A stretch of DNA of 52,304 nt from an uncultured bacterium (GTDB taxonomy: Bacteria > Patescibacteriota > Saccharimonadia > Saccharimonadales > Saccharimonadaceae). The notes beneath the pieces were generated by a model that saw nothing but the letters and a program-made list of their open reading frames with translations, was not told the origin of the DNA and ran no database searches. Below, piece by piece: positions 6,293-51,710 of this stretch. The stretch lies in the NCBI GenBank assembly GCA_903821365.1, contig CAIJKY010000017.1:1-52304 (forward strand). The letters run 5' to 3'. A program made the translations under genes and the position numbers. The first letter of the stretch is position 1; each line of letters opens with the position of its first letter.

Positions 6293-7579
6293 ATGAAGAA
6301 GGTCAAAAATGCTATCAAAAAAGTCTTGCCGGCGGAGGCTGAAAAAAAAGTAGCCAATGTGTTTCACTTTGGCGAGGCAGTTGCTGCGGCTGCACGCCAC
6401 AAGTTTCCGGCGAAAGACATGAAGGTTGTCATGGTGACAGGAACAAATGGCAAGACAACAACGGTGGCAATGCTTGCCAGTATCCTTAAGGCGGAGGGGC
6501 GAAAAGTCGGGGTTATTAGCACTGCGTTTTTTGAGATTAATGGTCAGCGGTTCGTTAACGATCAGAACTTTACTAACCTACACCCCTCGATCCTGCAGCG
6601 AAAACTTGCTGAAATGAAGAAGCATGGCGTCGAAGTGTTGGTGCTTGAGGTGACAAGCCATGCTTTGATGCAGCACCGCGTTTGGGGCATCCCATGCGAA
6701 GTTGCGGTCATGACAAATCTGACACAGGACCACCTCGACTACCACGGCACGATGGAAAAATATGCCGAAGCGAAAGCAAAATTATTCAAGCGAAAGCCAC
6801 GCTTTATCGTTCTTAATCATGATGATGAATGGTTTAATTTTTTTGATCAGTTTCCTCCTGGTGAACAGAGTATGTCATACGGCATTCACCCAGATGCCGA
6901 CACGCGCCTTACTGGTGCGCGAATGCACCGCCAAGGCAGCAAGGCTTCGGTTGAGATTGACCGTCAGGTTAAACTCGATCTCTTAGTTCATATGCCTGGC
7001 AAATTTAATGTTTATAATGCTATGGCTGCTGCGAGCGCGGCCTATGTCCTTCACGTGAAAACTGAAGCGATTGAGGCTGGAATCGATGCGGTCAAGGGTG
7101 TCCCTGGTCGACAAGAGAAGATTGAGGCAGGGCAGTCATTCGAGGTTCTGGTCGACTATGCGCACACACCTGATGCTTTTGAGCAGTTGTTGAGCTCTTT
7201 ACAACATTTAAGTAAAAAGCGGCTACTGCTTGTTTTTGGTGCGACTGGTGACCGTGATAAGGGCAAGCGCCCGATCATGGGTGAGGTCGCTGCGCGATAC
7301 GCCGACCGTATATATGTCACTGATGACGAAACGTACGGCGAAGACGCAGCTTCGATTCGGACAATGGTTATGGACGGCATTAAACGTGCTCAAGCGACAG
7401 AGAAGACAGAAGAGATCGCCGATCGTCGCGACGCAATCAGCGCGGCACTGGCTGAGGCAAAGCGCGGTGATACGGTAGTGGTGACGGGTATGGGTCACGA
7501 ACGATTCCGTATTACTAACGGTGAAAAAATCGCTTGGAACGATGGTGATGTGGTCCGCGAACTACTCGCGCGTGGATAA
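6293..7579 (+). CDS. MurE-like Mur ligase lacking the N-terminal UDP-binding domain
   Basis: A 428-residue ATP-dependent ligase. The P-loop GTNGKTTT (about 50-57), EVTSHAL, the NLTQDHLDYHG segment and the C-terminal domain with VDYAHTPDAFEQLL and FGATGDRDKGKRP are MurE hallmarks. Two things are odd. Only about 45 residues precede the P-loop, so the roughly 100-residue UDP-MurNAc-binding domain of true MurE is missing. At the substrate-specificity site the sequence is TDDETYGED (343-351) instead of DNPR (diaminopimelate) or DNPA (lysine). It probably adds an amino acid to a cell-wall precursor, but the substrate cannot be assigned. It probably starts leaderless, 6 nt after TAAAAT. It converges tail to tail with the FemX-like gene. 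Confidence 0.75.
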   Translation: MKKVKNAIKKVLPAEAEKKVANVFHFGEAVAAAARHKFPAKDMKVVMVTGTNGKTTTVAMLASILKAEGRKVGVISTAFFEINGQRFVNDQNFTNLHPSILQRKLAEMKKHGVEVLVLEVTSHALMQHRVWGIPCEVAVMTNLTQDHLDYHGTMEKYAEAKAKLFKRKPRFIVLNHDDEWFNFFDQFPPGEQSMSYGIHPDADTRLTGARMHRQGSKASVEIDRQVKLDLLVHMPGKFNVYNAMAAASAAYVLHVKTEAIEAGIDAVKGVPGRQEKIEAGQSFEVLVDYAHTPDAFEQLLSSLQHLSKKRLLLVFGATGDRDKGKRPIMGEVAARYADRIYVTDDETYGEDAASIRTMVMDGIKRAQATEKTEEIADRRDAISAALAEAKRGDTVVVTGMGHERFRITNGEKIAWNDGDVVRELLARG

Positions 7580-7582
7580 CGT

Positions 7583-8593
7583 CTACTTTGCTGATCGAAG
7601 CGTGTGCAGCTTTTTCTGTGCTTGCCGCCGAAGTGTCGAGGCCTGGCTGGCCGCTCGATAGGCACGATACCACTGAGTTTTGACGGGTATATCCCAGGTA
7701 CCGACATAGCTGACCGCAAAACCACCGAATGATTGCTTAAATCGTGTAAAACCGCTCCACGGGTGGTTTGGCTGGTCGGGTGGCGCAATGCCATACATGT
7801 CAAAGTAAGATTTACCTATTTTTTGAGCTTCTATAATGCCGTAAGCAACGACAAGAGTGCTTACTTGTAATTTATGAAATTCATAGTGAGCTGCGGCATG
7901 CGCGTATGAGCGCGTAGTGGCACTGTCGAAGGCAATAATGGTTGCCGCGGGCTTGCCGTCGACTTCTGCAACAAGCAAGCAGGCATTTTTGTTGGGCATA
8001 AGTGTTTTTGCCTGCAGGCTGAAATAGCTATCGCTGTGGGGGCGCATACCAGTGCGGGCGGCAACTTCATGAATTGCATCTAAGAATATTTGTATTTCTT
8101 CGGGGTTGTAGCTCGTGCGAAAGCTAAGCCCAAGAGCAGAATTATCGTGAAGCCAATAACGGCGCGTTGTTTTAGAAAAGTTCTTTAAAACATCAAGCTC
8201 ATCGCCGATGAGTGGAATGTGCCAGGTGTGCTCGGGCTGCATGCTGTGGGGCGCCCTAACGGCTTGTGCCGATGTTAGCTCACTTGTTAGTTGCGTGATG
8301 GCGTGAGCGCTGTCGGATGCCTGGCTGTAATCTGTGCCAGCAATCTGTGGCTCGATACGAACATAGTGGGCACCAACGGCTGCTGCTTGCTGTTTAAGTG
8401 CGGTAACGGCATCAGCAAGATCTGTGGGGCTGGCAAGGGTAGGGCCATAAGGGCAGTAGAGACGTGGAAACTTACCAGTTTCTAAGACGGCGAGCCAGTG
8501 CCAACGTTCGGTGCTGGCTTCGAATGTCTGATTGCCTTGTGCTTCTTGAAAACGCTTCCAGGCATCGGTCTGAAGAAAATGGGCAGGGTGCAT
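7583..8593 (-). CDS. FemA/FemB-family peptidoglycan aminoacyltransferase (FemX-like)
   Basis: A 336-residue protein with the two GNAT-like lobes of the FemABX family: HFLQTDAWKRFQEAQGN at the N-terminus, KTTRRYWLHDNSALGLSFR in the middle, and the C-terminal SYFDMYGIAPPDQPNHPWSGFTRFKQSFGG signature. The family uses aminoacyl-tRNA to build interpeptide bridges on lipid II at the inner face of the membrane. The start at 8593 (MHPAHFL) is preferred over an in-frame ATG eight codons earlier because a minus-strand -10 TATAGT (8604-8609) lies between them. It ends 4 bp from the MurE-like gene, so two peptidoglycan-peptide genes are side by side. Unlike classic FemA there is no coiled-coil insertion. 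Confidence 0.87.
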   Translation of the reverse strand: MHPAHFLQTDAWKRFQEAQGNQTFEASTERWHWLAVLETGKFPRLYCPYGPTLASPTDLADAVTALKQQAAAVGAHYVRIEPQIAGTDYSQASDSAHAITQLTSELTSAQAVRAPHSMQPEHTWHIPLIGDELDVLKNFSKTTRRYWLHDNSALGLSFRTSYNPEEIQIFLDAIHEVAARTGMRPHSDSYFSLQAKTLMPNKNACLLVAEVDGKPAATIIAFDSATTRSYAHAAAHYEFHKLQVSTLVVAYGIIEAQKIGKSYFDMYGIAPPDQPNHPWSGFTRFKQSFGGFAVSYVGTWDIPVKTQWYRAYRAASQASTLRRQAQKKLHTLRSAK

Positions 8594-8715
8594 AATGGTT
8601 CTTACTATACCATGCAACGCAGACTAGATGATGGTACTGTATAATGCCTGATATGGGGCGCGAGCAAATACGTCAGCGACAACGCGCTAACCCTTAAAAG
8701 GAGGAATAATTAGTT

Positions 8716-10062
8716 ATGAATGAAGCAATTTTTAAAGCCTACGATGTACGTGGCAAGGTCGGGAGCGAACTGAATGCTGAAAGCTGCCAACGCATCGGCC
8801 GAGCTTTTGCCGACTGGTTGCCACTCGATGGCCCTGTTGCTGTAGGGTATGACATGCGCCCAGATTCAAAAGAACTTGCTGAAGCTGTAGCTGAGGGCCT
8901 ACGCCTACAGGGGCGAGAAGTATGGTCAATTGGCCAAGTTGCAAGCGACATGCTCTACTTCGCTGTTGGCAGTCTTGAGGCGGCTGGCGGTGCAATGATC
9001 ACAGCGAGCCACAACCCAGGCGAGTATAACGGTATAAAGTTTTGTCGCGAGCAAGCGAAAGGTGTTGGTATCGAGACAGGCCTAGCTGAAATCCGCGACT
9101 TAGCAGTGAATAATGATTTTGCGCCATCGCTCGAAAAAGCGCCGATGCTTGAAAAGAATGTGATGGATGCTTGGGTGCAGCACGCACTCAATTTTGTGAA
9201 TGTTGCCGACTGGCCTGCGTATAAGATTGCGGCTGACGCTGGCAATGGCATGGCGGGCGCGGTGCTCCCTTACTTAGTAAAACACTTGCCTGAGCACGTC
9301 CAGGTGACGCCAATGTACTGGGAGCTCGATGGCACATTCCCAAACCACCTCGCCAACCCACTTGATCGCAGCACACTTGTTGCTTTGCAAGCCAAGATTA
9401 AGGATGAAGGTCTCGATTTTGGTCTAGCATTTGACGGCGACGGCGACAGGGCGGCACTACTCGACGAGAATGGCCAGCCAATGAGCGGTACAGTGATGAC
9501 GGCTATCTTGGCGCAGTACTTCTTAAAGAAGAATCCAGGTGCCACGGTACTCTATAATGCAATCTGTGGTCGTGTTGTTAAAGAAACAATTGCCGATGCT
9601 GGCGGCAACGGTGTACGCACTAAAGTGGGGCATAGCTTCATTAAGGGCGACATGCGAACACACGATGCGGTGTTTGCAGGTGAACATTCTGGTCACTATT
9701 ACTTCCGTGATAACTATTCTGCAGACTCAGGTCTTATTGCTGCTTTGGTGGCAATACAGGTTTTGGCTGAAAGCGGTAAAAAGTTGAGCGAGCTTATTGC
9801 AGAATTTGATGATGTCTACGTGTCGATTGAGGAAACAAACTTCGAAGTTACCGACAAAGAAGGAACTTTGGCACGCTTGCAAGCCGAGTTCCAAGATGGT
9901 ACTCAAGATGACCTTGATGGTCTGACGGTTAATTATGCAGACAGCTGGTTTAACGTCCGCCCAAGCAATACCGAGCCTTTGCTACGGCTCAACGCCGAAG
10001 CGAAAGATAAAGCGATGCTCGACGAGCTTGTTGCTAAAGTGACAGCAGTCATTAAAGGCTAA
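8716..10062 (+). CDS. Phosphomannomutase/phosphoglucomutase
   Basis: A 448-residue alpha-D-phosphohexomutase. The phosphoserine loop is TASHNPGEYNGIKF (near residue 97), the metal-binding loop is FDGDGDRAAL, the sugar-binding loop is GEHSGHYYF, and the phosphate-binding loop is RPSNTEPLLRL near the C-terminus. It interconverts hexose 1- and 6-phosphates and supplies sugar nucleotides for the cell surface. Mannose versus glucose preference cannot be told. A TATAAT at 8641 and a very strong AAAAGGAGG ribosome-binding site precede the ATG, so this gene has a real leader, unlike many neighbours. A perfect 12-bp hairpin follows at 10081. Confidence 0.92.
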   Translation: MNEAIFKAYDVRGKVGSELNAESCQRIGRAFADWLPLDGPVAVGYDMRPDSKELAEAVAEGLRLQGREVWSIGQVASDMLYFAVGSLEAAGGAMITASHNPGEYNGIKFCREQAKGVGIETGLAEIRDLAVNNDFAPSLEKAPMLEKNVMDAWVQHALNFVNVADWPAYKIAADAGNGMAGAVLPYLVKHLPEHVQVTPMYWELDGTFPNHLANPLDRSTLVALQAKIKDEGLDFGLAFDGDGDRAALLDENGQPMSGTVMTAILAQYFLKKNPGATVLYNAICGRVVKETIADAGGNGVRTKVGHSFIKGDMRTHDAVFAGEHSGHYYFRDNYSADSGLIAALVAIQVLAESGKKLSELIAEFDDVYVSIEETNFEVTDKEGTLARLQAEFQDGTQDDLDGLTVNYADSWFNVRPSNTEPLLRLNAEAKDKAMLDELVAKVTAVIKG

Positions 10063-10080
10063 GAGCTCCCATTAAACACT

Positions 10081-10117
10081 GTAAAAGTGGCCTGCGTATC
10101 TGTATGGCCACTTTTAC
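10081..10117. terminator. Hairpin downstream of the phosphohexomutase gene
   Basis: GTAAAAGTGGCC (10081-10092) and GGCCACTTTTAC (10106-10117) form a perfect 12-bp stem with a 13-nt loop. The distal arm carries four Ts inside the stem but no clear U-tract follows. It separates the mutase from the groES operon. Confidence 0.7.
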
Positions 10118-10138
10118 GCTGCGATTACTACAACCCTC

Positions 10139-10165
10139 CTGGCACTCGTAGCTAGAGAGTGCTAA
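10139..10165 (+). promoter_or_regulatory. CIRCE operator (HrcA binding site) of groES-groEL
   Basis: The right arm GAGTGCTAA (10157-10165) is a perfect CIRCE half-site. A 9-bp spacer (10148-10156) separates it from the left arm CTGGCACTC (10139-10147), which matches TTAGCACTC at seven of nine positions. The geometry is exactly that of CIRCE, so repression of groES-groEL by HrcA is expected. No hrcA gene is in the window. The left arm overlaps a possible -35 (TGGCAC, 10140-10145), 17 bp before a possible -10 TAATAT (10163-10168), so repressor binding would cover the promoter. Confidence 0.85.
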
Positions 10166-10233
10166 TATAGAACCATACCTTGCACTTTGTTGTTGCAAGG
10201 ACAACCATACTACTGTAAAGGAGGCTATATTTT

Positions 10234-10497
10234 ATGAGCGTACCATTAAAACCGCTTGCCGATAGGGTTGTTGCTGTTAAAGATGAGATAAAGAGCAAGA
10301 CCGCCACTGGCTTTTATTTGCCCGAAAGTGCAAAAGAAAAGTCGTCACTCGCAGTTGTGAAGGCGATCGGCCCGGATGTAAAGAATATTAAGGTTGGCGA
10401 GAAAATCGTTTACAAAGAATATAGTACAACCGAGCTCAAAATTGACGGCACAGAATATTTGATTGTCAAAGAAGAAGACGTCCTCGCGACAGTCTAG
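10234..10497 (+). CDS. groES: Co-chaperonin GroES
   Basis: An 87-residue Hsp10, slightly short for the family. It has the standard start PLADRVVAV, a mobile-loop region EIKSKTATGFYLPESAKEKSSLA, and the closing VGEKIVYKEYSTTELKIDG-EYLIVKEEDVLATV. It caps GroEL during protein folding in the cytosol. A strong AAAGGAGG ribosome-binding site lies upstream of the ATG, and a CIRCE operator lies about 70 bp upstream. The groEL start follows 25 bp after the stop, so the two form one heat-shock operon. Confidence 0.96.
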   Translation: MSVPLKPLADRVVAVKDEIKSKTATGFYLPESAKEKSSLAVVKAIGPDVKNIKVGEKIVYKEYSTTELKIDGTEYLIVKEEDVLATV

Positions 10498-10522
10498 TCA
10501 AAGCAAACGAAAGGAGCCCACC

Positions 10523-12169
10523 ATGGCAAAAAAAGTATTTTATGATGACGAAGCACGCCGCCGTGTCCTTGGCGGCGCCAAGGCGCTTTACGATGCAGTA
10601 AAGGTAACAATGGGGCCAAAAGGTCGCAACGTTATTATTAGTAAAAGTTACGGTAACCCAACGGTAACGCACGATGGAGTAACGGTCGCGAAAAGTGTTG
10701 ACCTCCCTGAAGAAGACGACGAAAATCTCGGATTCAAGGTTGGTGCCGAGCTGATCAAACAAGCAGCGAGCAAGATGAACGATGTCGCTGGCGACGGTAC
10801 GACAACAGTAACGGTGCTAACGTACAATATTTTAAACGAAGCGAACCGCTTAATTGCTGCTGGTCATAATCCAATGGAGCTCCGCAAAGGTGTTGAGGCT
10901 GCCGGTGCGGAAGTACTGACTGCACTCGAAAAGCTTGCTGAAGATATTGGAAGTAAAAAAGGCCGTGTCGCCGAAGTTGCCACAATTTCAGCGGGTGATG
11001 CTGCAATCGGTGAGTTAATCGCTGATGTTATTGCTAAGGTTGGCAAAGAAGGCGTCGTGACGGTTGAAGAGGGCCAGAGTCTTGGCATGGAAGCTGAAGT
11101 CGTTGAGGGCTTCACGATGGATCGTGGATTCATCAGCGCTTACATGGTCACTGATTCGAGTCGTATGGAAGCGGTCTACGACAAACCAGCCATCGTCATT
11201 ACTGACAAAAAAGTGACAAGCGTTCAAGATTTCTTGCCAGTGCTAGAAAAACTTGCACAAGCCGGTAAGAAAGATCTTGTCTTGATTGCCGAAGACGTCG
11301 AAGGCGAAGCACTTGGTACGCTCGTGCTCAACCGACTGAAGGGCGTATTCAACACCGTCGCAATTAAGGCTCCTGCCTTTGGTGACCGCCGCAAGGAGGT
11401 GTTACAAGATATTGCTATTTTAACCGGCGCAACGGTTATCAGTGACGACCAAGGCCTAACGTTTGAGAATGTTGACCTCAGCGTTGTTGGAACAGCGCGT
11501 AAGGTGATTGTCGGCAAAGACGAAACGACGATTATTGAAGGTGTTGGTAAGGTGAAGGACGTTGATGCTCGTATTCTTCAGATCAAAGCTCAGGCCGCTA
11601 ACGCGACGAGTGAGTACGACAAAGAACAGCTTGAAAAGCGCGCCGCAGCTCTCGACGGCAAGGTTGCGGTCATCAAAGTTGGTGGCGCTACCGAAACCGA
11701 AATTGAAGAGAAGAAATTCCGTGTTGATGATGCGGTCGCTGCGACAAAGGCTGCACTGGCCGAAGGTATTGTTGCAGGTGGTGGTGTAACACTAGTCAAT
11801 TTGTCACAAAAGCTCAAAGCAGATAACACGAGCTCCTACGAGGCTGGCCGTGGACTTGTTAAGAGTGCGCTCCAGGCTCCATTTGTACAGCTCATGGACA
11901 ATGCTGGCAAAAATTCGGCAGCACTACTAGCAAAACTCCTTGAATCAAAGGACGGCATGGGCGTCAACGTAAACGACCCAACTGATAAGCTTGTCGATAT
12001 GAAAGCAGGCGGTGTTGTTGACCCAGTGCGCGTAACAAAAGAGGCAGTACAAAATGCTGTATCAATTGCAGCTACGGCGATGACTATGGGTGCGCTTGTG
12101 GTTGAGATTCCCGAAAAAGAAGCTGCGCCTGCAGGCGGCATGCCTGGTGGTATGGGCGGCATGATGTAG
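10523..12169 (+). CDS. groEL: Chaperonin GroEL
   Basis: A 548-residue Hsp60, the family length. It begins [20 protein letters not shown], carries the ATP-binding GPKGRNVII and [12 protein letters not shown] segments, the apical-domain [14 protein letters not shown], and ends in the flexible Gly/Met tail [11 protein letters not shown]. It forms the double-ring folding chamber with GroES. The start is set at 10523 because AAAGGAG stands just ahead of it; the frame is open further upstream into the end of groES, but that extension has no homology. A symmetrical terminator follows at 12184. Confidence 0.97.
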
Positions 12170-12183
12170 GGCATATTCCCCAC

Positions 12184-12221
12184 AATATAAAAACCCGCTT
12201 TTTATAGCGGGTTTTTATATT
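12184..12221. terminator. Bidirectional rho-independent terminator after groEL
   Basis: A perfect 16-bp stem pairs 12184-12199 with 12206-12221 around a 6-nt loop, with a CCCGCT/AGCGGG core flanked by A- and T-runs. It serves groEL and the converging gene that ends at 12236. Confidence 0.9.
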
Positions 12222-12235
12222 AGATCGATAAAGTC

Positions 12236-12766
12236 TTACGCTGTCTGCGAAGCGAAGTAGTCAATTTCTTTAATCACATCAAGCAGCGCTTGCGCACGCT
12301 CGACATCATCAGGAATAGCTTTTGCAGCGATGTGTGCTGGGTTAAGCAGTGACTTGTCATCAGTCGAGCGGATAATCAACAGCATAGTGTCGAACTTTTC
12401 CTTTGGTGGCAAGTTCAGTTTATCAACGAGCGGACGCAGCTCTTCAAGAGCCTCTTTCTTGATAGTATCAAGTTCGCCGCCACCACGAATCTGGTTTGGC
12501 TCGGCTGCAACGTGTGCAGCAGGTTCGGTAGGTGGCGCGACTGGTGCTACGGGTGTGCTTGGGATAGCGATGGCTGGAGGCGCAATCACTGCGGCTGCAG
12601 GTGCCGCAGGGTTAGGAACTTCTTCGAAGTTCAAGACACCATCTTTATCGTGAGCTTCTGGGTCGCTTGTTGCAAGACTGTGGTTTTGTTGTTGCATGCC
12701 TTTTAATACGCTCGCTAATTCTTGATCGTCGCTAATCGCTTGATTTTGTGGTCCGTTGTTGTTCAT
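12236..12766 (-). CDS. Hypothetical protein with Ala/Pro-rich middle and helical C-terminal domain
   Basis: A 176-residue protein I do not recognise. The N-terminal 50 residues are polar and Gln/Asp-rich, residues about 52-95 are an Ala/Pro/Val linker, and the last 75 residues look like a small all-helical domain (LDTIKKEALEELRPLVDKLN, followed by DTMLLIIRSTDDKSLL and VERAQALLDVIKEIDYF). No signal peptide or membrane helix is visible, so it is probably cytosolic. The start at 12766 is chosen because AAGGGG stands about 5 nt upstream; an ATG 18 codons earlier has no such site. It may be lineage-specific. Confidence 0.6.
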   Translation of the reverse strand: MNNNGPQNQAISDDQELASVLKGMQQQNHSLATSDPEAHDKDGVLNFEEVPNPAAPAAAVIAPPAIAIPSTPVAPVAPPTEPAAHVAAEPNQIRGGGELDTIKKEALEELRPLVDKLNLPPKEKFDTMLLIIRSTDDKSLLNPAHIAAKAIPDDVERAQALLDVIKEIDYFASQTA

Positions 12767-33622: not shown

Positions 33623-34150
33623 TCAGCTGTGCACCGGAGGAGATGAATCGGGGAGCAGACTGGGGGCGATCTTGCCGGTCTCGTCGACGCCCCCACGTGC
33701 CAATAGTGCACACCAGATCGCCAACCAGTCATCAGTGTCGATGCCCTCAACCTCCGGGCGTTCGTCACTCGTCACCAGTAGCAGGTCGACAACACTGCCG
33801 ACCGTGGTGTACTCGCCACGGATCAGCCGGTTGAGGATCCGAACGCCGAGCCTATCGACTCCAGTGTTGTCGAGTACCTGAACGCTGGTTCCGCGGGTCA
33901 GCGTCATAAGCGCCTTGTGTCGTCGCTCCTGCTGTAGAGCTCGTTCTTTTGCCACCGCTGCGGCACGGTCTGCCTCGACTTGTTCCAAGATACCGGGCAT
34001 TGCCTGGCGCAGCGCCTCCATCGCGGCCGAGTTGCCGATGAAGCGTCGCAGTAGCGCACCAGTGTCGTGCCTGCGTCCCAGCAGACCCGACATGAACCGA
34101 TGTGCTTCGTTGTAGGTGAGTGTCGGCACTAAGCGATTCCTTCTCGTCAT
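33623..34150 (-). CDS. Orphan protein with an RNA polymerase alpha-CTD-like HhH domain
   Basis: A 175-residue protein. Residues about 97-153 (VDRLGVRILNRLIRGEYTTV and onward through GIDTDDWLAIWCALLARGGV) follow the alpha-subunit C-terminal domain: a conserved LG-R-LNRL-R helix, the TVG turn, and the second helix-hairpin-helix. The N-terminal 85 residues are helical and Arg-rich with a probable coiled coil (EQVEADRAAAVAKERALQQE). There is no polymerase alpha N-terminal domain, so it could contact promoter UP elements, activators or RNA on its own. The gene is GC-rich. GGAGG stands before the ATG at 34150; a TTG one codon earlier is less likely. Confidence 0.6.
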   Translation of the reverse strand: MTRRNRLVPTLTYNEAHRFMSGLLGRRHDTGALLRRFIGNSAAMEALRQAMPGILEQVEADRAAAVAKERALQQERRHKALMTLTRGTSVQVLDNTGVDRLGVRILNRLIRGEYTTVGSVVDLLLVTSDERPEVEGIDTDDWLAIWCALLARGGVDETGKIAPSLLPDSSPPVHS

Positions 34151-34178
34151 CAAACCTCCACGGTCGATCGAACCAAGC

Positions 34179-47226: not shown

Positions 47227-47847
47227 GTGAAGAACATCAAGAACTCGATCCTCACGCTTGAGGCATTCGAGGTGCTGGTGACGTACACGGCAAGAAGGGC
47301 ATTCGGCCTGTTCTTGCTGGTGGCGATTAGCACTGGCGCCTTGATCGGGCTCAACCTGGCCCTTCATAGTCTAGGAAGCCTCGCTCTGGCCGTCCCGCTG
47401 CTGCTTCGGCTGGCGGTGTACATCATCTGCACGGTCGCACCGGCACTGATGCTGTACGCGGTCGCGCTCGTCATCATCGAGCTGCGACCGCTGGCGCCTC
47501 GGCGTCGGCTGTTGTACGGCCGGCGTGCTCGCATGCTCATATTATACGGGCGCGAGCTCGTAGTGGTTCTGGCATCGGCGCTGGGAAGTATCAGTGCCGT
47601 GCTTGCCACGGAGTGGCTTGTGGCCACCATGAACACACCGTTCGTCGGCGCGAGCATCGCGGCCAGCCAGCTCGGTAACAACCTGTTCATCTGCGGGGCG
47701 TCGCTGATCTGCGGCGTCGCACTGATGATGTTCAGACTCTCGCTGTCACGCGAGACTCCGAAGGCCACGTCGCCGCAGGTGTACGCACCTGTGCGCAGGA
47801 TCCACGTCATTCGACCCACTCTCAGGAGGGGCCACTCACCACGATGA
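47227..47847 (+). CDS. Multi-pass membrane protein of unknown function
   Basis: A 206-residue protein with about five hydrophobic helices: FGLFLLVAISTGALIGLNLAL, LALAVPLLLRLAVYIICTV, APALMLYAVALVIIELRP, VVVLASALGSISAVLATEWL and LFICGASLICGVALMMFRL, with a basic loop RRRLLYGRRARM and a polar C-terminus. I do not recognise a family. It starts with GTG behind GAGGAGG. The codons are strongly GC-ending, in sharp contrast to rnj and ftsK on either side. It has its own perfect promoter and a long 3' hairpin, so it forms an isolated transcription unit. Confidence 0.65.
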   Translation: MKNIKNSILTLEAFEVLVTYTARRAFGLFLLVAISTGALIGLNLALHSLGSLALAVPLLLRLAVYIICTVAPALMLYAVALVIIELRPLAPRRRLLYGRRARMLILYGRELVVVLASALGSISAVLATEWLVATMNTPFVGASIAASQLGNNLFICGASLICGVALMMFRLSLSRETPKATSPQVYAPVRRIHVIRPTLRRGHSPR

Positions 47848-50309: not shown

Positions 50310-50338
50310 TTGCTTTTTAATGATATTTATGCTATAGT
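50310..50338 (+). promoter_or_regulatory. Extended -10 promoter of the first two-cysteine protein gene
   Basis: TTGCTT (50310-50315), a 17-bp spacer ending TGC, TATAGT (50333-50338). A 7-bp hairpin ACGCAAG/CTTGCGT (50348-50354 with 50371-50377) lies at the predicted 5' end. Confidence 0.72.
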
Positions 50339-50403
50339 AGTGTAGTGACGCAAGTGTGCTTTTGAAGACGCTTGCGTGGATCTACATATACAGGAGGCGG
50401 AGC

Positions 50404-50931
50404 ATGGGCTTCGTACGAGGTAACAAGCCGCAGGGTGTCGCCCTGTTGCTGGCTGTGATCGTCATGGTGGCCGCCGCGATTGGGTTTAACGCCCAGCCGA
50501 GGTGGTTCACTGAGACTGCAGTTCCGGTGGCGGGATTCGCTGCAGAGGGCCTAAATGGGCTCCGCTGTGGTGACGGCCTCATCGAGACCAAGCTACGGCC
50601 TGGAGATTCGGTGGTAACGGCCGCTGGCTCGAGCTTCACGTTCAACAAGACCGCAGACGGCTCGGTGTCTATCCAGGTCGTCATGTCCGAGAAGGAGACC
50701 TTTCAGGGCATGATCTTTGTGCCGCGCTGGCAGCGCATTGGCGCTCAGCCCAGTGTGGCGTGGGTCGACCGCGATCCGGCGGCCAGCAGCTTCTCGACCA
50801 AGCGAAAAGCTGCGGAGTTCGCCATGTTCTTCCAGGAGGGCATCGACAGCCACGACTGGTCTTCCAGCACGCTGGACGTTGCGCAGGTCAGTGCACTCGA
50901 GGTGTGCACGTCCGGTGCAGCCAACACATGA
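50404..50931 (+). CDS. Secreted/anchored two-cysteine protein (first of a tandem pair)
   Basis: A 175-residue protein. After a basic start (MGFVRGNKPQ) comes a hydrophobic segment VALLLAVIVMVAAAIGF (about 12-28), either a signal peptide or an anchor. The outer domain is bracketed by Cys55 (LRCGDG) and Cys168 (LEVCTSG), likely a disulfide. I recognise no known family. It shares the layout, a weak sequence pattern and a related 3' hairpin with the next gene, so the two look like diverged paralogues. The ATG at 50404 follows GGAGGCGGAG; an upstream ATG at 50356 lies in the leader hairpin and is not used. The codons are GC-rich compared with ftsK. Confidence 0.65.
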   Translation: MGFVRGNKPQGVALLLAVIVMVAAAIGFNAQPRWFTETAVPVAGFAAEGLNGLRCGDGLIETKLRPGDSVVTAAGSSFTFNKTADGSVSIQVVMSEKETFQGMIFVPRWQRIGAQPSVAWVDRDPAASSFSTKRKAAEFAMFFQEGIDSHDWSSSTLDVAQVSALEVCTSGAANT

Positions 50932-50938
50932 TCCACGC

Positions 50939-50982
50939 GTCACACATGCCGAACTCGCCTCCGTGGCGGGTTCGGCAGTGAC
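50939..50982 (+). terminator. GC-rich hairpin 3' of the first two-cysteine gene
   Basis: TGCCGAACTCGCC (50947-50959) pairs with GGCGGGTTCGGCA (50965-50977), 13 bp with one wobble. GTCAC (50939-50943) and GTGAC (50978-50982) extend it past a 3-nt bulge. CCAAGCGGCTTAA follows, with no U-tract. Confidence 0.65.
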
Positions 50983-51017
50983 CCAAGCGGCTTAATCATT
51001 CAAAACGATTGAGAATC

Positions 51018-51046
51018 TTGTGTTTATATAATAAGTATGCTATAAT
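51018..51046 (+). promoter_or_regulatory. Extended -10 promoter of the second two-cysteine protein gene
   Basis: TTGTGT (51018-51023), a 17-bp spacer ending TGC, perfect TATAAT (51041-51046). The hairpin TTGGCG/CGTCAA (51054-51070) begins 8 nt after the -10. Confidence 0.78.
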
Positions 51047-51106
51047 ATAGGTATTGGCGTTGTACGTCAAGATCCTACTCGCTCCCCATGAACCTTAGGA
51101 GGTCTC

Positions 51107-51658
51107 ATGCGTACCAATGGTTATTGGCGTCACTGTGCGCTGGCCATCGCTGTTGCAGTTGTCACGAGCCTCGGCTTGCTCACTGCACTCAGTGGTGTTA
51201 CGCGCACCGCGCCGACCTCGGTGCCCATCGTGGTCGGCGTCACTTCGGCACCGATCGCCGCCTCGCAGCTGGCGTCCGACGCATTCTCCCCCTACAAGCC
51301 GAACAAGCATGTGGGATTGGAGTGCGCTGGCAATTCTACCAGCGCTTTTGTCGATGGTCCATCTGTGTACATCGCCAACAGTACGTCCCTGCAAGCTGAG
51401 GTGAACTTCAACAGGCTGGGGCAACCCAGCTCGCTGAACCTCGAGGTGCAGGCGGGCTTCAACGAGTCGGTCACGGGCTTGCTCATCATGGGACGCAACG
51501 GAAACAGCTATCACAGCTATCCGTTGCGCCAGTTCGTCGCCGAGAGTAATCGGTGGAGTACCGTGATCGACATCGCCGGCGCCTCCGACAAGCTAGCAGA
51601 AGGGTTGATGCACTACCGTCCGTGGATGGTGCTCGCCTGCACGGCACCCGCCGCGTAG
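51107..51658 (+). CDS. Secreted/anchored two-cysteine protein (second of a tandem pair)
   Basis: A 183-residue protein with hydrophobic N-terminal segment CALAIAVAVVTSLGLLTALSG (about 10-30), a Ser/Thr/Pro-rich stretch, and an outer domain between Cys73 (LECAGN) and Cys178 (LACTAP). Cys10 lies at the start of the membrane segment. The spacing of the outer Cys pair (105 residues) and the LxC...CT pattern parallel the preceding gene (113 residues). The beta-rich domain is of unknown function. TAGGAGG precedes the ATG. It sits between ftsK and rpsF as its own GC-rich transcription unit. Confidence 0.65.
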   Translation: MRTNGYWRHCALAIAVAVVTSLGLLTALSGVTRTAPTSVPIVVGVTSAPIAASQLASDAFSPYKPNKHVGLECAGNSTSAFVDGPSVYIANSTSLQAEVNFNRLGQPSSLNLEVQAGFNESVTGLLIMGRNGNSYHSYPLRQFVAESNRWSTVIDIAGASDKLAEGLMHYRPWMVLACTAPAA

Positions 51659-51671
51659 GCTCGCGTACAAC

Positions 51672-51710
51672 GTCACTCGCCGAACCCCACGCAAGAGGTT
51701 CGGCGGTGAT
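51672..51710 (+). terminator. GC-rich hairpin 3' of the second two-cysteine gene
   Basis: 51672-51686 pairs with 51697-51710 (core CGCCGAACC/GGTTCGGCG) with one bulged T and a 10-nt loop. It resembles the hairpin at 50939-50982 in its core and in the following CCAGCCGCTTAA. Confidence 0.65.

What the first reader, a model, noticed from the sequence alone, without database searches (positions are those of the whole stretch)
50310..51710. Tandem paralogous secreted two-cysteine proteins between ftsK and rpsF
Two adjacent genes encode 175- and 183-residue proteins with an N-terminal membrane/signal segment and one Cys pair (LRC...VCTSG, 113 apart; LEC...ACTAP, 105 apart). Even their 3' hairpins match in core (GCCGAAC...GTTCGGC flanked by GTCAC...GTGA) and in trailing sequence (CC-AGC-GCTTAA). 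This indicates an old duplication of a whole cassette. Surface-exposed disulfide proteins of unknown fold in an epibiont are good candidates for host interaction.
Basis: partly seen in the sequence, partly recalled or inferred. Interest (0 to 1): 0.7.

Follow-up and report, generated by a model that had tools for sequence, protein, structure and literature searches.

The report
Hypervariable secreted-protein gene cassettes in Saccharibacteria
Between two housekeeping genes of a tiny parasitic-type bacterium sit two one-gene units for exported, disulfide-type proteins, and they belong to a genome-wide set of fast-changing, G+C-rich one-gene units whose messages end in a strong hairpin and often have ends that can pair with each other.

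Summary
Genes A (50404-50931) and B (51107-51658) are separate one-gene units, each with an extended -10-like box, SD, exported protein, one Cys pair and a matching 3' hairpin. A-B paralogy cannot be shown from protein sequence alone (p about 0.01-0.08). The matching hairpins and tails are far above chance. A sister species has, in the same ftsK-rpsF slot, two tandem secreted two-Cys proteins; one is a clear homologue of A with both cysteines conserved.

The larger finding is that A and B are two of about 57 single-ORF, GC3-rich (0.66-0.95; genome 0.48) cassettes scattered through this Saccharibacteria genome. Cassettes carry composition-corrected 3' hairpins (median z about -4; core about -0.4). 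In 25 of 26 syntenic slots the sister genome also holds an insert, yet most contents are unrecognisable: 12 of 57 cassettes have any hit (median 32% identity), against 568 of 748 core genes (68%). In both genomes the leader of many cassettes is complementary to the first 30 nt after the stop (20 seen, 5 expected); core genes of these two genomes show no such excess.

I read A and B as fast-evolving exported proteins on end-paired mRNAs. Host interaction is plausible but untested.

The parts
50310..50338 (+). promoter-like box of cassette A: TTGCTT-17 nt-TATAGT with extended -10 TG
   Evidence: read from sequence; matches the B promoter 73% over 30 nt; not reported by the strict scan
50345..50382 (+). 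leader of A: GTGAC (50345-50349) and GCGTGGATC (50374-50382), complementary to the stretch after the A stop; a local ACGCAAG/CTTGCGT hairpin competes
   Evidence: duplex -21.2 kcal/mol; class-level enrichment
50392..50397 (+). Shine-Dalgarno AGGAGG of A, 6 nt before ATG
50404..50931 (+). gene A, 175 aa, N-terminal hydrophobic segment, Cys55/Cys168; homologue A' in sister species G026
50930..50943 (+). 3' arm of A (GATCCACGCGTCAC), overlapping the stop, complementary to the leader
50947..50977 (+). 3' hairpin of A, 13 bp; GTCAC/GTGA extend it and compete with the leader pairing; no U-tract
51018..51046 (+). promoter-like box of cassette B: TTGTGT-17 nt-TATAAT with extended -10 TG
   Evidence: read from sequence; not reported by the strict scan
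51055..51066 (+). leader arm of B (TGGCGTTGTACG), complementary to 51664-51675 (one G-U)
   Evidence: (I21); about 10.5 expected pairs in the transcript ensemble
51097..51102 (+). Shine-Dalgarno AGGAGG of B
51107..51658 (+). gene B, 183 aa, N-terminal hydrophobic segment, Cys73/Cys178
51664..51675 (+). 3' arm of B (CGTACAACGTCA)
51678..51705 (+). 3' hairpin of B, same core and same tail as A
47227..47847 (+). another cassette of the class: 206 aa, apparently multi-pass membrane protein by its sequence, GC3 0.78, in the rnj-ftsK slot
33623..34153 (-). another cassette of the class: 176 aa, GC3 0.68

Best explanation
A and B are two adjacent, self-contained one-gene cassettes (promoter-like box, leader, SD, ORF, 3' arm, GC-rich hairpin) in an accessory slot between ftsK and rpsF. 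Each makes a small exported protein: a signal segment, then a beta-rich domain probably closed by one disulfide joining its first and last strands. They probably arose by tandem cassette duplication before this genus split, then diverged so fast that only A still recognises its counterpart in the sister species. They belong to a genome-wide class of about 57 such cassettes that keep their slots but change content far faster than core genes, as expected for proteins facing a changing partner outside the cell (host actinobacterium, competitor or phage). On the RNA side, the leader can pair with the stretch just after the stop beside the 3' hairpin. I think this closes the message end to end, protecting it from exonucleases and damping translation until opened. 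Shown: anatomy, class, hairpins, conserved slots, fast divergence, enriched leader/3' complementarity. Inferred: export of A and B themselves, the disulfide, RNA pairing in vivo, and any role toward a partner cell.
For: Same slot in the sister species (neighbours 86-91% identical) holds two tandem secreted two-Cys proteins; A vs A' local alignment z 11.5, 0 of 2000 shuffles, both Cys conserved. Class: GC3 0.66-0.95 against 0.48; hairpin z -4.05/-4.09 in two genomes against -0.36/-0.47 for core. Slots: 25 of 26 also occupied in G026, against 32 of 119 ordinary intergenic pairs (p 2e-11). Content: 12/57 hits at median 32% against 568/748 at 68%. Leader x 0..+30 after stop is the clearly enriched cell of 20 window pairs (20 vs 5.2, p 3e-5), seen separately in each genome and absent in their core genes; transcript ensembles agree (p 0.008 and 0.005; core 0.086). 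VKOR and DsbA-type proteins present.
Against: B has no detectable homologue, not even B' (p 0.97 local). A and B themselves lack a perfect signal-peptidase site, so they may stay membrane-anchored. Leader/3' complementarity is strong in only about 15-20% of cassettes and is not evident by eye in A' or B'. The windows were chosen after seeing G000 examples; only G026 is independent, and the many-locus set was too small to confirm (3 vs 0.7, p 0.13, while its core-like control showed a mild excess, 33 vs 22). The class also contains ordinary acquired enzymes (desaturase, P450, C-C bond lyase, TerD), so part of it may simply be horizontal transfer. Structures are low-confidence.
Confidence: 0.55

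Rival explanations
1. The cassettes are simply recent single-gene acquisitions from high-G+C bacteria (host actinobacteria or high-G+C Saccharibacteria) landing in tolerant intergenic spots; each brings its own terminator hairpin, and the pair A/B is an imported tandem.
For: GC3 far above the genome; several cassettes are enzymes of wide distribution; most have no homologue in the sister genome; cassette third-position composition resembles the core of the 58% G+C sister genome.
Against: The A-A' relationship and the two-Cys tandem are in the same slot in the sister species; 25/26 slots are shared; promoters look native AT-rich; import does not predict leader/3' complementarity.
Confidence: 0.25
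2. The leader and 3' arms are terminal inverted repeats of a mobile element, and A and B are cargo genes moved as DNA.
For: Arms flank the ORF tightly and cassettes occur in tandem and dispersed.
Against: Arm sequences differ from cassette to cassette, whereas a transposase would need shared ends; the enrichment is strongest inside the transcribed leader and little or none upstream of the promoter (p 0.2-0.6 at -190..-130, lowest p 0.013 at -130..-70).
Confidence: 0.07
3. A and B are unrelated secreted genes that only share regulatory ends: one ORF was replaced inside a duplicated cassette shell.
For: 3' ends match strongly while proteins do not reach significance.
Against: Same order of GLxC, beta strands and C-terminal Cys in both, and a second two-Cys tandem in the sister species.
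Confidence: 0.25

Closest known systems
icaR mRNA of Staphylococcus aureus (5'-3' UTR pairing; PMC3868564)
   Same: The 3' UTR is complementary to the 5' leader of the same message
   Different: icaR is one regulator gene with a long 3' UTR pairing its SD region through UCCCCUG; here arms differ per gene, usually lie right after the stop beside a strong hairpin, and occur across a class of cassettes
Integron gene cassettes
   Same: One ORF followed by a hairpin; frequent tandem copies
   Different: Own promoters, scattered sites, no shared attC core sequence; integrase not searched
Accessory-gene hotspots at conserved gene junctions
   Same: The ftsK-rpsF junction is empty or tight in many Saccharibacteria and filled with different genes in others
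   Different: Here dozens of slots hold mostly single-gene units with a common architecture

Membership tests
Intrinsic (Rho-independent) terminator | GC-rich hairpin followed at once by a run of T | tested here: not met
   Hairpins at 50947-50977 and 51678-51705 lack a T-run and are not found by the scan; a few other cassettes do have T-runs
Integron gene cassette | attC with RYYYAAC / GTTRRRY boxes, shared among cassettes | tested here: not met
   A/B core GCCGAAC/GTTCGGC breaks the box at one position and occurs at only two places in the genome; other cassettes have different hairpins
Integron gene cassette | IntI integrase nearby | not tested
   no integrase search was run
Transposon with terminal inverted repeats | end sequences shared between copies | tested here: not met
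   arms differ between cassettes
icaR-type 5'-3' UTR pairing | leader complementary to the own 3' UTR beyond chance | tested here: met
   class level, two genomes; A and B duplexes about -21 kcal/mol
icaR-type 5'-3' UTR pairing | pairing changes translation or decay in the cell | not testable with these tools
   needs RNA probing and reporters
Any named protein family (Pfam, NCBIfam, PHROGs, PDB) | profile match above cut-off | tested here: not met
Known RNA family (Rfam) | covariance-model match | tested here: not met
   only one sub-threshold hit, E 0.2, 14.7 bits against a gathering score of 95.9

The most novel reading that the evidence does not exclude
Saccharibacteria of this lineage keep dozens of fixed chromosomal slots filled with autonomous one-gene units whose mRNAs are closed by pairing of their own two ends next to a 3' hairpin. 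The architecture is selected while the encoded, often exported, proteins turn over rapidly, in effect an effector or surface-protein repertoire with a common RNA chassis.
Probability: 0.3. Interest if true: 0.82.

Novelty: new variant of a known kind. Interest (0 to 1): 0.62.

Why it matters
Patescibacteria have tiny genomes full of genes nobody can name. Here part of that unknown fraction turns out to be one recognisable class with measurable features (composition, slot, hairpin, end complementarity) that can be scanned for in any genome. If the class encodes the exported proteins that meet the host, it gives a short candidate list for how these epibionts choose and exploit hosts. The end-paired mRNAs would extend bacterial 5'-3' UTR pairing from single examples to a class.

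Tried and rejected
A-B blastp, profile comparison and shuffled alignments did not prove paralogy. Homologue searches in the own genome, about 295 family genomes, GTDB contigs, viral contigs, plasmids and phages found nothing convincing; the automated family search even missed A', which was found by reading the syntenic slot. Single- or two-sequence AlphaFold models were poor and the PDB fold search gave no E below 0.049. RNA duplex energy with bulges was too noisy to separate matched from mismatched ends; contiguous runs and full-transcript ensembles were cleaner. 5' region similarity of A and B is not distinctive.

Full report
What is there. The window is one whole contig (52,304 bp) of a 1.03 Mb, 17-contig genome. 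Gene A is 50404-50931 and gene B 51107-51658. Each has a TG-extended -10 box with a weak -35 at 17 nt, an AGGAGG, a start 4-6 nt later, and a hairpin within about 20 nt after the stop.

Is the pair a duplication? Protein comparison does not decide it: blastp is insignificant, mature-domain alignments give p 0.08 (local) and 0.011 (global), hhalign E 0.029 at 1.7% probability. The nucleotide ends are more telling. The hairpin core exists only at these two places in the genome, and of 1485 pairs of cassette 3' ends A-B ranks fifth, with three of the four higher pairs being tandem neighbours elsewhere. Tandem cassettes are therefore a habit of this genome (C10:21350/21882/22364; C13:6095/7355; C2:43/636, whose proteins are recognisably paralogous at E 3e-5). 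Both AlphaFold models are weak (pLDDT 55 and 44), but in both the first Cys lies in the first strand or strands of the mature part and the last Cys in the last strand.

The sister species. G026, same genus, has core proteins 86-91% identical around this locus. Its ftsK-rpsF slot holds a 436-aa right-handed beta-helix protein and then two tandem small proteins with clean signal peptides and the same two-Cys layout (A' Cys42/137; B' Cys33/135, with Cys15 in the signal segment), each with its own hairpin. A and A' share LRC-DG, PGD, MS-E, G-I-VP and VC-T; local z is 11.5, with no shuffle of 2000 reaching the score. B and B' show no similarity. So the two-gene arrangement is probably older than the species split and evolves very fast. 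In A/A' nucleotide identity by codon position is 0.42/0.53/0.40. Neither A nor A' was found convincingly elsewhere in about 290 family genomes.

The class. GC3 of ORFs of 250 aa or more averages 0.48 (sd 0.07), yet 57 ORFs of 110 aa or more have GC3 0.66-0.95. They are mostly single genes between core genes. Their 3' regions fold far better than shuffles of themselves (median z -4.05; core -0.36), and the same holds for small GC3-rich genes of G026 (-4.09; -0.47) (raw energies). Some are acquired enzymes (fatty acid desaturase, P450, C-C bond lyase, DUF3182, TerD); many are orphans, including exported or lipoprotein-like ones. Against G026 only 12 of 57 have a hit, median 32% identity, while 568 of 748 core genes do, median 68%. 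Yet the slots persist: of 26 slots that can be aligned, 25 hold at least 580 nt in G026 too, against 32 of 119 ordinary intergenic pairs of 60-350 nt (69 of 365 when tighter pairs are included). The ftsK-rpsF junction itself is tight in 31 of 72 named Saccharibacteria loci and otherwise filled with unrelated genes, often pilin-like or beta-rich exported ones.

Paired ends. By eye, several cassettes have a leader complementary to the stretch right after the stop. In A: GTGAC + GCGTGGATC pairs with GATCCACGCGTCAC, 14 bp, -21.2 kcal/mol. In B: TGGCGTTGTACG pairs with CGTACAACGTCA, -21.4 kcal/mol. The control is each leader against other cassettes' 3' regions. Runs scoring 8 or more occur 8 times against 1.7 expected in G000 and 13 against 2.9 in G026, p about 1e-4 each, with no excess in core genes of either. 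Scanning 20 window combinations, the clearly enriched one is leader (-66..-6) with 0..+30 after the stop (20 against 5.2, p 3e-5); a neighbouring window reaches p 0.013 and the hairpin window p 0.047. Partition functions of whole transcripts agree: own 3' ends give more pairs with the leader than swapped ones (p 0.008 in G000, 0.005 in G026; core 0.086). A set of named loci gave 3 against 0.7 in only 16 genes, with a mild excess in its core-like control, so this is not an independent confirmation. In both A and B the GTCAC of the 3' arm can alternatively extend the local hairpin by pairing with GTGA, so the two structures compete, which would suit a switch (inference).

Mechanism and its status. 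Shown: architecture, composition, hairpins, slot conservation, rapid divergence, end complementarity in a subset. Feasible: disulfides, since VKOR and two DsbA-like thioredoxins are encoded. Inferred: that the pairing forms in RNA and alters decay or translation, for which the closest precedent is icaR of S. aureus, where pairing of 3' UTR and SD region blocks translation and makes an RNase III substrate (PMC3868564); and that the exported proteins face a changing partner outside the cell. The literature searches run here found no description of such a class, but most subscription papers are not held.

Limits. GC3 thresholds and ORF picks are mechanical, and start codons are uncertain, which blurs leader positions. 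The pairing windows were set after looking at G000 examples; G026 is the only independent set. Two genomes of one genus are a small phylogenetic sample.

Noticed in passing
window 47227-47847 and sister-genome locus L098 about 7100-12700 (minus strand): The rnj-ftsK slot holds one apparently multi-pass membrane protein here, but several small membrane-type ORFs plus two tandem neutral zinc metallopeptidases (PF04228) in G026, and a different 135-aa GC3 0.77 gene in G022.
   Followed up: partly
G000 C2:43-1085 (L011) and G026 C2:170727-171548: Another tandem pair of exported two-Cys proteins, with at least one member homologous between the two species; a second case of the same arrangement as A/B.
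   Followed up: partly
G000 C3:2077-2601 (L012) and window 33623-34150: Two dispersed cassettes on different contigs share a similar 3' region (score 37, above A-B).
   Followed up: no
G000 C11:54212-54721 (L084): 169-aa secreted Cys-containing protein with GC3 0.95 in a genome averaging 0.48; 43% identical hit in G026 at a different place.
   Followed up: no
G026 versus G000: Two species of one genus differ by ten points of G+C (58% and 48%), while their core proteins around this locus stay 86-91% identical.
   Followed up: no
L118:9424-9861 and L126:9062-9508: Homologous HTH-like GC3-rich genes with strong 3' hairpins in the ftsK-rpsF slot of two other Saccharibacteria.
   Followed up: no
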